DNA from: Alicyclobacillus acidocaldarius subsp. acidocaldarius Tc-4-1
GTDB taxonomy: Bacteria; Bacillota; Bacilli; Alicyclobacillales; Alicyclobacillaceae
Length of the DNA stretch: 64,000 nucleotides
Reading direction: 5' to 3'
NCBI RefSeq assembly: GCF_000219875.1
Contig: NC_017167.1
Location: 600,765-664,764, forward strand
Below the pieces are notes generated by a model. The model ran no database searches, was not told where the DNA came from, and saw only the letters and a program-made list of their open reading frames with translations. This document shows, piece by piece, positions 38,220 to 53,314 of this stretch (position 1 is the first letter of the stretch; every line of letters begins with the position of its first letter). Position numbers and translations under genes: made by a program.

Positions 38220-39227
38220 ATGATCAGGAGCCGCGGCTTCGGGGTGTTTGTGTTCGTCATCGCCATCCTTTCGGCGGTGCAGAACTTCATCGTGAACGGC
38301 ATCGGCTTCCTTGACGCGTACACGGGCTCGGCGTTCGGATGTGGGCACGAGTGGTTCCTGTGCAACGGTCAGGTTCTACCGAGCCTTCAGGCCCTCGAGA
38401 AGTCGCTCAGCATGTTCATTGAATTCATGCACCGCGTGGGCGTTCCCATCCTCACAATTCTGCTGCTCGTCTCCGCGGTGAGCGCCTTGTTGAGGTATCG
38501 GGGATGGCGTGAGATTCAACTGTTTGTCGCCCTGAGCATCTTCTTCGTCCTCCTTGAGGCGGTCCTCGGCGGGCTCGCGGTGGTGTACAACGAGCCCGCT
38601 TCGGTCATCGCGACGCATTTCGGCGTGTCGCTCTTGGCCTTTGCCTGTACCGTGCTCCTGGCCATCTATGTGCGCCGGGCCGAGCGCGTATACGGAGAGT
38701 ACCTCGCGACGGGCGTCAAGCTTCCGCTGCGCGACGAGGCCCCGAGCGTCGGCTTTCGCTGGTTTGCGTGGCTTGGCGTTCCGATTCTCTACCTCGATAT
38801 GTACATCGGGGCGTACATCTCGTCGAGCGGCGCGGGCGATGCGTTTCGGGGGCTTCCGTTTCCGACCGAGTCGGGGATTTACAATTTCCATGACGCGCTG
38901 CTCCTCGATTGGGTCCATCGCTCCTTCGCGCTGTTTTTGGTGCTCTGGATGTTGACGCTTGTGGCGTGGACGAACCGGTTGAAGGCTGAGCGCCCGGACT
39001 TGTTCCGCGGCGCGGTGTTTGCCCTGGTGTTTGTCGTGCTTCAGGCGTTGTCTGGCGTATATTTGATTGCTTCGCACGTGAGCATCCAGGCGTTCATGTT
39101 GCACGTGTCCATTGTGTCCGGTCTGTTTGTGTCGCTCCTTTATGTGGCGTTTCAGTCCGTCCCTCCGTTTGTTCCGGCCGCGAGCCGAAACGCGGTGGAT
39201 GTGGGACGGGAGCGAACGGCGCATTGA
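38220..39227 (+). CDS. ctaA: Heme A synthase (CtaA/COX15 family)
   Basis: 335 residues with eight membrane helices in two similar halves. The first extracytoplasmic loop has the cysteine pair G-C-G-H-E-W-F-L-C-N-G; the heme-ligand histidines are in F-M-H-R, T-H-F, W-V-H-R and S-H-V-S. CtaA converts heme O to heme A, which the linked aa3-type oxidase needs. ATG 38220 follows GAGGGGGTG. The heme O synthase gene (ctaB) is not in the window. A strong terminator ends the operon. Confidence 0.9.
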   Translation: MIRSRGFGVFVFVIAILSAVQNFIVNGIGFLDAYTGSAFGCGHEWFLCNGQVLPSLQALEKSLSMFIEFMHRVGVPILTILLLVSAVSALLRYRGWREIQLFVALSIFFVLLEAVLGGLAVVYNEPASVIATHFGVSLLAFACTVLLAIYVRRAERVYGEYLATGVKLPLRDEAPSVGFRWFAWLGVPILYLDMYIGAYISSSGAGDAFRGLPFPTESGIYNFHDALLLDWVHRSFALFLVLWMLTLVAWTNRLKAERPDLFRGAVFALVFVVLQALSGVYLIASHVSIQAFMLHVSIVSGLFVSLLYVAFQSVPPFVPAASRNAVDVGRERTAH

Positions 39228-39240
39228 GTTGTGTTTTCGA

Positions 39241-39280
39241 GAGCCTGCTGGTCGCCGCTTGGCGCCGGCAGGCTCTTTTT
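39241..39280 (+). terminator. Terminator of qox-ctaA operon
   Basis: GAGCCTGC / GCAGGCTC outer stem, with further inner GGxCGCC/GGCGxC pairing and TTTTT at 39276-39280. Confidence 0.9.
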
Positions 39281-39402
39281 GACTTGTTGTTGGTCAAATG
39301 CGGCACTAGCCAAACGTGCAATCCAACCTCTAAACTAGGGGATTAGAGCGCGCATGACGCGCGGTGAGTGGATAGGAAAAGGTCTGGAGGTGGCTCGGTC
39401 GC

Positions 39403-40773
39403 ATGGCATTTCGTCTTATCCGCCTCGGATGCGCCGCGCTTGCTGCGGCCGCGTCGTTGGCCGTGTACAGTCCCGCGGTGCGGGCAGAACGCTCGACGTC
39501 GCCTCCGGTTTCGACCGAGTCGCTCATTCCTCGCGAAGACGTGTTGAACGTTCAGCTCGGTCCCGTTCCCTACGTCGTCGGAGAAGACGCCTCCGCATGG
39601 CCTTCCATTGTGTCGCAGGCGGCTGTGGTGATGGACATGGACACGGGCGTTGTAGTCTACGCCAAGCACCCCACAGCACTTCACTACCCCGCCAGCATTA
39701 CGAAGATCATGACGGCGCTCCTCGCCCTGCGGCTCGGGCACCTGACCGATGTGTTGACGGCCTCCACCGATGCGGTCCGCCAACCCCCGGACAAGCTGTA
39801 CATGCGCGCCGGCGAGAAGGAGACACTGAAAGATTTGCTGTACGGCCTGCTGATCGATTCCGCCAACGATGCCGCGGTCGAGATCGCCGAGCGATACGGC
39901 GGCAGCGTGGCCCACTTCGCGGACATGATGAACGCGGAAGCGCGAGCTCTAGGCGCCACCCATACGCATTTCGTGAACCCCAGCGGGCTGCCGGACCCTC
40001 GCCACGTCACCACCGCGTACGACATGGCGTTAATCGCCCGCGCGGCGATGCAGATCCCAGAGTTTCGCACGATTGTCGATACGCGATCCTACCCGTGGAA
40101 GGGAACCGCGTGGCAGGCGACGCTCACCAACTTGAATCGCATGCTGTTCACGTATCCGGGCGCCATTGGCGTCAAAACGGGATTTACGAGCGTGGCGCAT
40201 GAAACCCTTGTCGTGGCCGCCAAGCGAGGCGGTACGACATTTCTCGCAGTGCTGATGGACTGTCCCACGGACGCGCAAATCCGCCAGGATGCCACGGACT
40301 TGCTCAATTTCGCGTTTGCGCACTATCAGACGCAGCGCATTCTACCCGCCGGATACCGAGCGGGCTTTGTCTCGGCGCGCGATGGGAAGGATCCCGTCAT
40401 CACGCCAGAGCCGGTCCTCGCGACGGTGCCCCTCGGTCACCCTCTCGATGTGGAGAACGTGTTGCACGAGCAGGCGCCGCTCCATGCAGCGCCGAAGGGA
40501 ACGGTGGCGGGGGAACTCGATCTCGTCGATGTCTCGACGGGCAAAAAGCTCGGCACGGTGCCGCTGGTGCTCGCGGAGCCATACCAACCCGTACCAAAGC
40601 CCATTCCGTGGGTCAAGCTTGCTGCGCGCACTGGCACGGCGGTGGTGCTGATGGCGGCCCTTGTGTCTGGGTGGCGTCGGCGCAGACGGTCGCGCTTGTC
40701 CTCGCGCGCTCGCGTCGTGCGCGTCCAGCCGTGGCAGGAATCCTGGCAGAGCGCGCGGCGGGGCCGCAGGTAG
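39403..40773 (+). CDS. D-alanyl-D-alanine carboxypeptidase (DacF-like PBP)
   Basis: 456 residues. The signal peptide (about residues 1-28) ends A-V-R-A. Active-site motifs are S-I-T-K (98-101), S-A-N (153-155) and K-T-G (258-260), so the S11 peptidase domain is intact. A C-terminal beta domain (about 330-400) and a last helix (about 415-435) with a very Arg-rich cytosolic tail anchor it to the membrane. It trims pentapeptide side chains of peptidoglycan; DacF-type enzymes of Bacilli act in spore cortex or general wall maturation, and which role applies here is not resolved. GGAGG precedes the ATG. Confidence 0.93.
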   Translation: MAFRLIRLGCAALAAAASLAVYSPAVRAERSTSPPVSTESLIPREDVLNVQLGPVPYVVGEDASAWPSIVSQAAVVMDMDTGVVVYAKHPTALHYPASITKIMTALLALRLGHLTDVLTASTDAVRQPPDKLYMRAGEKETLKDLLYGLLIDSANDAAVEIAERYGGSVAHFADMMNAEARALGATHTHFVNPSGLPDPRHVTTAYDMALIARAAMQIPEFRTIVDTRSYPWKGTAWQATLTNLNRMLFTYPGAIGVKTGFTSVAHETLVVAAKRGGTTFLAVLMDCPTDAQIRQDATDLLNFAFAHYQTQRILPAGYRAGFVSARDGKDPVITPEPVLATVPLGHPLDVENVLHEQAPLHAAPKGTVAGELDLVDVSTGKKLGTVPLVLAEPYQPVPKPIPWVKLAARTGTAVVLMAALVSGWRRRRRSRLSSRARVVRVQPWQESWQSARRGRR

Positions 40774-50347: not shown

Positions 50348-51000
50348 GACCGATGTCAGTACGCCGTCCAGCCCGCGTCGGCGATCACGACGGCCCCGTT
50401 CACGAAGCTCGCCTCATCCGACGCGAGAAACAGGGCCACGTTCGCGATCTCCTCGGGCTTGCCCGTGCGCGGGTTGATGCCCATTCCCGCCATGGCTGCC
50501 TGCACCCCAATGGACGACGGATCGACATTCGGGCTCGAGCCCATGATGTTCGTCTCCACGCCGCCGGGCGCGATGGCGTTGCAGCGAATGCCGAAGCGCG
50601 CGTACTGGTAGGCGACGTTCTTGGTCAGACCCACGACGGCGTGTTTGGAGGCCGTGTACGCCGCGCCCGCGCGGGAACCAAACAGGCCTCCCACCGATGC
50701 GATGTTGACAATCGCGCCGCGCCCTTTGTCCATCATGAGGGGCAGCGCCCTGCGAAGGGCGCGCATCGGCCCCGTGACATTGACCGCAAACACGCGCTCC
50801 CACAACTCGTCCGTGACCTCGTGAGCTGCTTTCATGCCGTCCATGATCCCCGCGTTGTTGACGAGGATGTCGATCCCGCCGAACACATCGACCGCGCGTT
50901 GAATCATGCCATCGACATCGTCCGCGGAAGCCACGTTGGCGACGCAGGTCTCGACGCGGCCGCCCGCGCTGCGGATTTCGTCGGCGACGGATGCCAGACC

Positions 51001-51200
51001 GTTCTGCGATTCATGGACAAATGTCCACTTCTCGCTTCCTGCTTCTACGACCCGTGACTAGCAGCCGAAGGCCGCCCCGTCAGAGGGATCTCCACAGGCG
51101 TCACTTCCCGCGGAACTCGCGGTACTGATTCTCAAAAGATTTTTCGCTGCGTTGATGTCGCGGTCATGCCGCGTGCTGCACGCCGGGCACGTCCACTCCC
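51001..51200 (-). ncRNA. Candidate omega RNA (TnpB guide RNA scaffold)
   Basis: By analogy with characterised TnpB systems, the right end of the element together with the last part of tnpB should encode the scaffold. The guide should begin at the element edge (minus strand from 50998-51000 onward). Seen here: GAAGCAGGAAGC and a TGGAC/GTCCA hairpin just before the edge. The 5' limit is a guess. Confidence 0.45.
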
Positions 51201-52209
51201 GTGCCGACAATGGCAGCTCGCTTATCACGTACCCGCACGCCGAGCACGTCTTGCTGCTCGCGTAAAACCGTGGTGCCACGATGAGTTCCGAGCCGTACCA
51301 CGTACACTTGTACGTCAACATTCGCCGAAACTCGCCAAAACCCACGTCCGAAATGGCTCGCGCCAACGCTCGATTCTGCACCATGCCTCGCACATGCAGG
51401 TCTTCCATGGCGATTGCTCGCTTGGTTTTCGCGAGCTCCGTCGTCACTTTGTGCAAAAAGTCCTGACGTATGTTGCGGATCTTCCGGTGCAGCCGAGCAA
51501 GCGCCAGCGCCGACTTCCGCCGATTTCGCGAGCCTGGTTTCTTTCGGCTATGCCGCTTCGATAACCGCCTTAAGCGGCGAAGGTATCGGGCGAGCGGCTT
51601 TGGCGCCTCGATTTTCGTCCCGTCAGACAACGTCAAAAACCACGAGACCCCCAGATCCACATCCACCGGCTCGCCCGAAGGTGGAACAGGGTCCGGAATC
51701 TCCGTTTCTGCCGACAAACTCACATACCATCGGTCCGCCTCCCGCTTGACCGTCGCCGACAGGATTCGGCCTTCGACATGCGGTTTTTCTTTCAGCCGAA
51801 TCCGCCCGAGCCGAGGCAGTTGTATGGCGTTGTCCAAGACGCGAATCGAACCCGTCAGGCGAAATGAATCGTCGCGCCCTTTTTTCTTGAAGCGAGGGAA
51901 TCCGACCCTGCGTCCCTCCTTCAACCCGCGAAAAAAGTGTTGAAACGCGCGATCCAAGTCCCGCAGCGCTTCCTGCGGGGCGCATTTGGAGACCTCGTAC
52001 ATCCACGGGAAGTCGGTTTTCTTCAGGCGGTTGAGTTCCCGATGCTGTTCGATGGCGTTCGTGCTTTGCCCCGTCTCTTCATAGAGCGCGATGCGTCTGG
52101 CAAGCCCCCAATTGTACGCAAATCGGGCCGCACCTGCGTGCTTGGCAAGCAGGCTCCGTTGCATCCGATTCGGCGCCAACTCATACCGATACGCCCGATG
52201 AATCTTCAC
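51058..52209 (-). CDS. tnpB: TnpB RNA-guided nuclease-type transposon protein
   Basis: 383 residues, full length for compact TnpB. GTG 52209 has GGAGG 9 bases upstream. The N-terminal wedge region is rich in basic residues. The RuvC-like centre is complete: Asp185 in V-D-V-D-L-G-V-S-W, Glu269 in I-A-M-E-D-L-H-V, Asp351 in H-D-R-D-I-N-A-A-K-N. The zinc finger has Cys322/325 and Cys341/344. TnpB proteins cut DNA guided by an RNA from the element end and help keep the transposon. Overlaps the recombinase gene by 29 bases. Confidence 0.95.
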   Translation of the reverse strand: MKIHRAYRYELAPNRMQRSLLAKHAGAARFAYNWGLARRIALYEETGQSTNAIEQHRELNRLKKTDFPWMYEVSKCAPQEALRDLDRAFQHFFRGLKEGRRVGFPRFKKKGRDDSFRLTGSIRVLDNAIQLPRLGRIRLKEKPHVEGRILSATVKREADRWYVSLSAETEIPDPVPPSGEPVDVDLGVSWFLTLSDGTKIEAPKPLARYLRRLRRLSKRHSRKKPGSRNRRKSALALARLHRKIRNIRQDFLHKVTTELAKTKRAIAMEDLHVRGMVQNRALARAISDVGFGEFRRMLTYKCTWYGSELIVAPRFYASSKTCSACGYVISELPLSAREWTCPACSTRHDRDINAAKNLLRISTASSAGSDACGDPSDGAAFGC

Positions 52210-52769
52210 GTTTGAAAACCTCCAAAGCGCGCTTGGCGCGGTGACGAGCGGAACGTCGCCCGTACAACCGCGCGCAAAACGACGTGAGGACTTCGATCAT
52301 GTCTTGCACCAAGTCGTCCTTGACCTCGCCTGGCTCCACGACGAGGATTCGTCGGCCTTGAGCCGCCAAAGCCGCCTCGACGTATTCAAACCCGAACCGC
52401 ATGAGCCGATCCCGATGCTCCACCACAATCGTATGCGCATCTGGATTGGACAGTAGTTTCATGAGCTTCGGTCGATGTCCGTTGAGCCCCGAGCCGATTT
52501 CCGTGACCGCCTTGACCACGACAAGCCTCTGTTCCGTTGCAAATTCCATGAGTCGTGCGATTTGGCGATCCAAATCGGCTTTTTGATCGGCGCTTGACAC
52601 GCGGGCATACAAGGCCACGGCATTCTCCGTGGAAGACTCGGGTTCGTGAACAAGGATGGTGCCCGAAGGAGTTTGCTCAAAAGGCACGGGCATCCGGCCT
52701 TCTTTTACCCCAACGCCAGGCGGTCTTGTACGTGATTCCATTCTTTCTTGCCCAATCACTGATTTTCAT
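52181..52769 (-). pseudogene. tnpA: IS607-type serine recombinase (TnpA), one-base frameshift
   Basis: The N-terminus starts at ATG 52769: M-K-I-S-D-W-A-R-K-N-G-I-T-Y-K-T-A-W-R-W, the MerR-like DNA-binding helix of IS607 recombinases. After 20 codons the frame is lost. The continuation K-E-G-R-M-P-V-P-F and the recombinase domain (A-L-Y-A-R-V-S-S with the catalytic Ser, then E-H-R-D-R-L-M-R-F-G) are in another frame. Reading GGG in place of GGGG at 52708-52711 restores W-R-W-V-K-E-G-R. With the frame as given, a 192-codon product without the DNA-binding helix is possible. Confidence 0.8.
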
Positions 52770-53096
52770 AGAAATGAAATACATCAAATGTACATGATTG
52801 TCCATCATTCAATGAGCAGTTCTCAGCCCTCGGCGGCGATGTCGACCGCGAGCACGCGTGCACCCTCCTGAGCAAAACGAATGGCCATCGCGCGGCCCAT
52901 GCCGGATGCCGCACCTGTGATGACAGCGACGCGATCTTCCAGGCGCAAGAAGAAGACCTCCCTTATGCATGAAAAATGTTTATCATTGAAAACATTCGTG
53001 ATGGCGCGAGGGAATCCTGCGGCTTTGGAGACGCGGATGAGGCAAGGGGGCGGTACGCGACAGCGCGGCCAAGCCAGGGGCCTATCGCACGCGAAT

Positions 53097-53126
53097 ACGA
53101 AAAAATCCGCGCAACAATGCGCGGAT
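53097..53126 (-). terminator. Terminator of tRNA-Pro
   Basis: On the minus strand ATCCGCGC pairs with GCGCGGAT, followed by a run of six T. It lies 14 bases beyond the tRNA 3' end. Confidence 0.85.
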
Positions 53127-53139
53127 TTTCGATCTTGAG

Positions 53140-53215
53140 TGGTCGGAATGACAGGACTCGAACCTGCGACCTCACGGTCCCGAACCGTGCGCTCTACCAC
53201 CTGAGCTACATTCCG
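53140..53215 (-). tRNA. tRNA-Pro (anticodon CGG)
   Basis: 76 bases with encoded CCA. Acceptor CGGAATG pairs perfectly with CATTCCG, D-arm GCTC/GAGC, anticodon arm CACGG-TTCGGGA-CCGTG with CGG at the decoding position, T-arm GCAGG-TTCGAGT-CCTGT. It reads CCG codons. Confidence 0.95.
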
Positions 53216-53314
53216 TCGCCTTGACGCCTCAAAGCGGACAGCGATAAATATAGCAGAGGGCACCTTCCTCGTCAAGGCCTTTTTGTGGAAAAGGGATGCC
53301 TGAGATGCTTTCCA

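What the first reader, a model, noticed from the sequence alone, without database searches (positions are those of the whole stretch)
50999..52828. IS607-family element bounded to the base by an in-frame empty-site reconstruction
Both halves of an SDR gene flank a tnpA-tnpB element. GG occurs at both junctions (50999-51000 and 52827-52828). Keeping one GG and deleting the rest gives GAG-GGT-CTG in the correct frame, and the restored protein reads A-A-E-G-L-A-S-V-A-D-E-I as SDR proteins do. This fits serine-recombinase insertion at a GG core without target duplication. The lack of decay in either half suggests a recent insertion.
Basis: partly seen in the sequence, partly recalled or inferred. 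Interest (0 to 1): 0.72.

Follow-up and report, generated by a model that had tools for sequence, protein, structure and literature searches.

The report
IS607 jumping gene inside dehydrogenase gene
A known kind of bacterial jumping gene has inserted, without duplicating host DNA, into a dehydrogenase gene that related species carry uninterrupted at that point; it is an ordinary member of its family with an unusually well-defined insertion footprint.

Summary
Five same-genus relatives carry the SDR gene uninterrupted across this site, gap-free, with one GG where the window has two. The host genome has nine full copies, one internally deleted copy, a fragment and a solo left end; the ten copies with both ends share the same boundaries. 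It is an IS607-family tnpA-tnpB insertion sequence.

Refinements: (i) the site is more than GG. The left junction reads purine-GGG in 10 of 10 own copies and 4 of 4 in relatives. In the window it is GAGGG, one of two published IS607 TnpB target-adjacent motifs (PMC11061315, passages), though TnpA alone may also favour (G)GG (PMC6188088, passage). (ii) The SDR halves are undecayed, but this copy's tnpA is frameshifted. tnpA is disrupted in 8 of 14 copies; tnpB is open and full length in 14 of 14. (iii) Own copies are mosaics of one another, suggesting gene conversion.

Likely mechanism: TnpA-mediated circle insertion at GG, then TnpB guided by the right flank cutting emptied sites; circle and cutting are inferred. 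Verdict: new member of a known kind, modest interest.

The parts
50999..52828 (-). IS607-family element, both GG copies included
   Evidence: Copies and empty sites
52827..52828 (-). GG core at the left end (upstream of tnpA)
50999..51000 (-). GG core at the right end
52827..52831 (-). GAGGG at the left junction, proposed TnpB target-adjacent motif (includes the core)
   Evidence: RGGG in 14 of 14 copies; published motif in passages of PMC11061315
52181..52769 (-). tnpA region, IS607-type serine transposase; frameshifted in its N-terminal part in this copy (intact copies exist elsewhere in the genome)
   Evidence: NF033518, PF00239, comparison of copies
51058..52209 (-). tnpB, RNA-guided nuclease family, 383 aa, open
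   Evidence: PF01385, PF07282, PF12323; NF040570; motifs
51001..51125 (-). Proposed omega RNA scaffold, overlapping the tnpB 3' end and running to the right end
   Evidence: Block conserved in L186 and L190, where tnpB ends before it; folds
50979..50998 (-). Proposed guide segment: first 20 bases of SDR sequence after the right end (length assumed)
   Evidence: Position only; its first 16 bases with GG have one exact match in the genome
52829..52948 (-). SDR gene, first 40 codons (TTG start inferred)
50356..50998 (-). SDR gene, remainder to the stop codon
   Evidence: PF13561

Best explanation
An IS607-family insertion sequence. TnpA, a serine transposase (in this copy's history, its own or that of an intact copy), exchanged a circular form joined through GG with a GG in the SDR gene, leaving one GG at each end and no duplicated host DNA; codon 41 of the SDR gene is split and the gene should be inactive. 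TnpB, loaded with an RNA that ends at the right end and continues into SDR sequence, is expected to recognise the emptied site, where the guide match follows GAGGG, and cut it, so that repair from a chromosome still holding the element restores it. At the occupied right junction the same match follows AACGG, so it should be spared. Shown here: family, ends, empty sites, junction motif, open tnpB, conserved right-end block. Inferred: the circle, action in trans, the RNA's function, cutting and repair.
For: IS607 transposase model 189 bits against a cut-off of 110; 10 of 10 own copies with identical ends; gap-free empty SDR site in 5 same-genus relatives; gap-free junctions at three further insertion sites (L010 4 of 4, L013 5 of 5, L015 3 of 3 loci); RGGG at 14 of 14 left junctions against a 7.1% background; GAGGG is a measured TAM of some IS607 TnpBs (PMC11061315, passages); tnpB open in 14 of 14 with catalytic and zinc motifs; GG overlap and circular intermediate are the published IS607 model (PMC4058570 and PMC6188088, passages).
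Against: Core GG is kept in only 1 of 3 relatives' loci at L015 and 2 of 4 at L010; the L017 site is intergenic and aligns only with indels. The G before GG is absent in the two closest relatives (G013, G002) at the SDR and L013 sites, so it must be strain-specific there. Covariation support for the right-end RNA is weak. Window TnpB scores below the cut-off of the IS607_TnpB model and is closer to IS200_TnpB, also below that cut-off. No activity was tested.
Confidence: 0.9

Rival explanations
1. The RGGG footprint is set by TnpA target choice alone, and TnpB's motif merely follows it.
For: Passage of PMC6188088: insertions of IS607 with orfA only, pooled with orfAB ones, prefer (G)GG. tnpA-deleted copies also sit at RGGG, as expected if they were placed before the deletion or in trans.
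Against: The same passage finds no further sequence preference, whereas here the purine before GGG is 14 of 14 and GAGGG is a measured TAM. One related element (L179) lacks GGG yet persists, which does not separate the two.
Confidence: 0.45
2. The two SDR pieces were never one gene here, or a different two-base placement of the ends is right.
For: None found.
Against: Uninterrupted orthologues of matching length in five same-genus relatives; shifting the core one base left breaks the frame and the length match.
Confidence: 0.01
3. tnpA disruption and intact tnpB reflect chance or sequencing error and not selection to keep tnpB.
For: Two of eight tnpA lesions are frameshifts in short homopolymer runs (L009, L010). 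pN/pS is similar for tnpB (0.21) and tnpA (0.26) in ten own copies. The fragment L019 has a damaged tnpB.
Against: All eight lesions in tnpA by length alone has probability about 2e-4, six about 1.5e-3, if lesions are independent. IStrons show the same loss of ORF A (PMC4227781, passages).
Confidence: 0.35

Closest known systems
IS607 family (IS607, IS1535, ISC1926, ISC1904)
   Same: Serine transposase plus tnpB, GG overlap, no target duplication (PMC6188088 and PMC4058570, passages). Closest solved TnpA relative: the IS1535 transposase, 6dgb.
   Different: Strict RGGG left junction; this copy's tnpA is frameshifted.
IS607 TnpBs with RAGATH-18-derived guide RNAs (ISFba1)
   Same: GAGGG beside the left end, as for 4 of 22 strains there (passages).
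   Different: No Rfam family matched the element at E up to 1; window TnpB is nearer to the solved TnpBs 8h1j and 8bf8/8ex9 and to a designed nuclease 9yyg than to the other natural match above E 1e-40, 8iaz. That 8bf8/8ex9 is ISDra2 TnpB is recalled.
Group B IStrons
   Same: IS607-type ORF A, GG-ending targets, ORF A often lost while ORF B stays (PMC4227781, passages).
   Different: No intron matched in the element.

Membership tests
IS607 family | Serine-recombinase transposase of IS607 type | tested here: met
   NF033518 above its cut-off in the window copy; N-terminal part out of frame in this copy, in frame in L011-L014
IS607 family | Insertion at GG without target duplication | tested here: met
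IS607 family | No terminal inverted repeats | tested here: inconclusive
   No repeats within either end; repeats between the two ends were not searched
IS607 family | Circular intermediate | not testable with these tools
   Needs DNA from cells
TnpB (OMEGA) nuclease | RuvC D-E-D and zinc-finger motifs | tested here: met
   Motif patterns in the window copy; TnpB models
TnpB (OMEGA) nuclease | Structured right-end RNA with guide from the flank | tested here: inconclusive
   Conserved block, z -1.97, 5 of 39 pairs with a kept double change and covariation term -0.32
TnpB (OMEGA) nuclease | TAM-dependent guided cleavage | not testable with these tools
   Junction motif only
RAGATH-18-derived reRNA class | Match to a curated RNA family | tested here: inconclusive
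   No match in 50700-53300 at E up to 1 other than a tRNA and weak leucine-leader hits outside the element; whether Rfam holds a RAGATH-18 model was not checked
IStron | Group I intron in the element | tested here: not met
   No intron match

The most novel reading that the evidence does not exclude
In this lineage the element persists largely as nuclease-only copies: TnpB, not TnpA, decides which insertions survive (only those preceded by an RGGG motif), tnpA is free to decay while tnpB is kept, and repair of TnpB cuts also shuffles sequence between copies, explaining the mosaics.
Probability: 0.2. Interest if true: 0.5.

Novelty: new member of a known kind. Interest (0 to 1): 0.25.

Why it matters
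A family of ten copies with base-exact ends and natural empty sites is a clean test set for one open point: whether the G-rich junction of IS607 elements comes from the transposase's target choice or from later survival under TnpB. It also shows transposase decay beside an intact nuclease gene in an element without an intron; the IStron survey noted such decay for IStrons and contrasted it with IS607 elements (PMC4227781, passage).

Tried and rejected
Rejected: an ancestrally split SDR gene. Rejected: a core placed one base further left, which breaks frame and length agreement. Rejected: IStron (no intron match). Led nowhere: searches with the left and right ends alone found no small non-autonomous derivatives, only one clear extra left end of 27 bases at G000:C1:1792944-1792970. 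The repeat search looked inside each junction region separately and found nothing. Reading TAM-contact residues from alignments to solved TnpBs was not decisive. A paper search for Alicyclobacillus acidocaldarius with IS607 listed two papers; I saw only the listing and abstract starts. A search joining TnpB with gene conversion listed one paper.

Dropped before counts: dN/dS pairs with G002, whose internal SDR deletion scrambled that alignment, and G014, which was aligned but not put in the pairs; L018 and the fragment L019 from the mosaic test, which used nine copies; L180, an exact duplicate of L179 over 5,985 bases; L017 from the clean empty sites. Of the nine other copies, flanks of four were searched. 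Of the matches, 13 places were fetched.

Full report
What is there. The window is 600765-664764 of a single 3,124,048-base contig. The genus is Alicyclobacillus by inference: three named Alicyclobacillus loci give the same alignment figures as three same-genus genomes. On the minus strand, 40 codons of an SDR dehydrogenase (52948-52829, TTG start inferred) are followed by GG, an element, GG, and the rest of the gene down to 50356. The element encodes an IS607-type serine transposase (tnpA) and a TnpB.

Boundaries. A search of the own genome with the element gave 12 matches: nine full-length copies, one internally deleted copy in two pieces, and one fragment. In an alignment of the nine full copies, shared sequence begins and ends at the GGs. 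All ten copies with both ends read GGG-NNN-AGAACTGCTCA at the left and GCAGAACGG at the right. Of 14 other same-genus genomes searched, three hold the element: one copy each in G002 and G014, two in G010, both internally deleted. Their left ends fit the same pattern; of their right ends three read CAGAACGG and one, L122, CAGGACGG.

Empty sites. At the SDR site five same-genus relatives run through the junction without a gap; one more distant locus spans it with a one-base gap each way and lacks GG there, and four alignments did not reach it. I searched flanks of four of the nine other copies. At L010, L013 and L015 the junction itself is gap-free in 4 of 4, 5 of 5 and 3 of 3 loci, but the core GG is present in only 2 of 4, 5 of 5 and 1 of 3 (L131 has gaps about 20 bases away). 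L017 is intergenic and aligned only with indels. No target duplication was seen.

Junction motif. The left junction is RGGG in 10 of 10 own copies and 4 of 4 in relatives. Of 10,008 GG dinucleotides in the window, both strands, 19.3% are preceded by G and 7.1% by RG; binomial chances of 10 of 10 are 7e-8 and 3e-12. A solo left end elsewhere reads GAGGG as well. The base after the right GG is T in 9 of 14 copies, against 16.9%. In related elements (61-71% TnpA identity), read by eye, 7 of 7 left ends outside genome G223 are RGGG; in G223 4 of 5 distinct copies are and L179 is not. Passages of PMC11061315 report TAMs AGGAG (18 of 22 strains) or GAGGG (4 of 22) for IS607 TnpBs. A passage of PMC6188088 reports a preferred (G)GG target in a compilation of IS607 insertions with orfA alone and with orfAB. 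Either enzyme or both may therefore set the footprint. At the SDR and L013 sites the relatives G013 and G002 have A before GG, so the G there is probably particular to this strain; GG exchange with the element's own ends, which carry C before the right GG, would not bring it in.

State of the genes. In the 14 copies tnpB is open: 382 or 383 residues from the KIHRAYRY start in 13, and 398 with an altered tail in L018. My motif patterns missed two motifs in L122 and L123; the residues are there with small changes around them. The fragment L019 has a damaged tnpB and no ends. tnpA is disrupted in 8 of 14: frameshift, stop or deletion in L009 (the window copy), L010, L015, L016, L017 and L018, and deletions in L122 and L123. 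If lesions fell by gene length and were independent, eight of eight in tnpA has probability about 2e-4, and six, without the two homopolymer frameshifts, about 1.5e-3. pN/pS in ten own copies is 0.21 for tnpB and 0.26 for tnpA, a weak contrast.

Mosaic copies. Among the nine full own copies, 1118 of 2080 pairs of informative biallelic sites fail the four-gamete test, with a minimum of 20 exchanges. Within 100 bases 38% of pairs are incompatible, against 54% in permutations, 0 of 500 as low. Gene conversion is the simplest cause; a link to TnpB cuts is speculation.

Recency. SDR dN/dS is 0.087 between this strain and G013; own against G009 and G010 gives 0.113 and 0.077, and pairs among those three relatives 0.092-0.120. 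Codon changes are 32 silent to 6 replacement on the own lineage and 13 to 3 on the G013 lineage. Most divergence thus preceded the break. The nearest copy differs by 11 substitutions.

Guide RNA. A right-end block is conserved in L186 and L190, where tnpB ends before it. The strand folds with z -1.97. The consensus fold has 39 pairs, 5 with a kept double change, and a covariation term of -0.32. No Rfam family matched. The first 16 bases of the predicted guide with GG match the genome exactly once, at the element's own junction, and once more with two mismatches.

Conclusion. This is a clean, ordinary IS607 insertion. What is added is the strict RGGG footprint, the contrast of disrupted tnpA with open tnpB, and the mosaic copies.

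Noticed in passing
L193 (G000:C1:32000-50000) and L192 (G000:C1:2800000-2818000): Two of the ten copies (L012, L014) sit with their right ends beside CRISPR-like arrays of the same repeat: 21 repeats at 38241-39708 about 80 bases from L012, and 9 repeats from 2812021 about 450 bases from L014, which has cas4- and cas1-like ORFs on its other side (names by eye, no family search). How many arrays the genome has was not checked.
   Followed up: partly
L025 (genome G002): The SDR orthologue in G002 has an internal deletion of about 240 bases well downstream of the insertion point, ending in a short repeated stretch, so the gene seems dispensable.
   Followed up: no
window 52824-52826 and the same place in the other copies: The three bases between the left GG and AGAAC vary between copies (CTG, CCG, TCA, TTG) although neighbouring bases and the right end are nearly fixed.
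   Followed up: no
L120 and L121, right flanks: In both copies the host sequence after the right GG begins TTGAGAG, close to the element's own left end TTGAGAA; chance or a trace of an earlier insertion.
   Followed up: no
window 53143-53215: A tRNA gene lies upstream of the SDR start on the same strand; weak, sub-threshold leucine-leader matches lie beside it.
   Followed up: no
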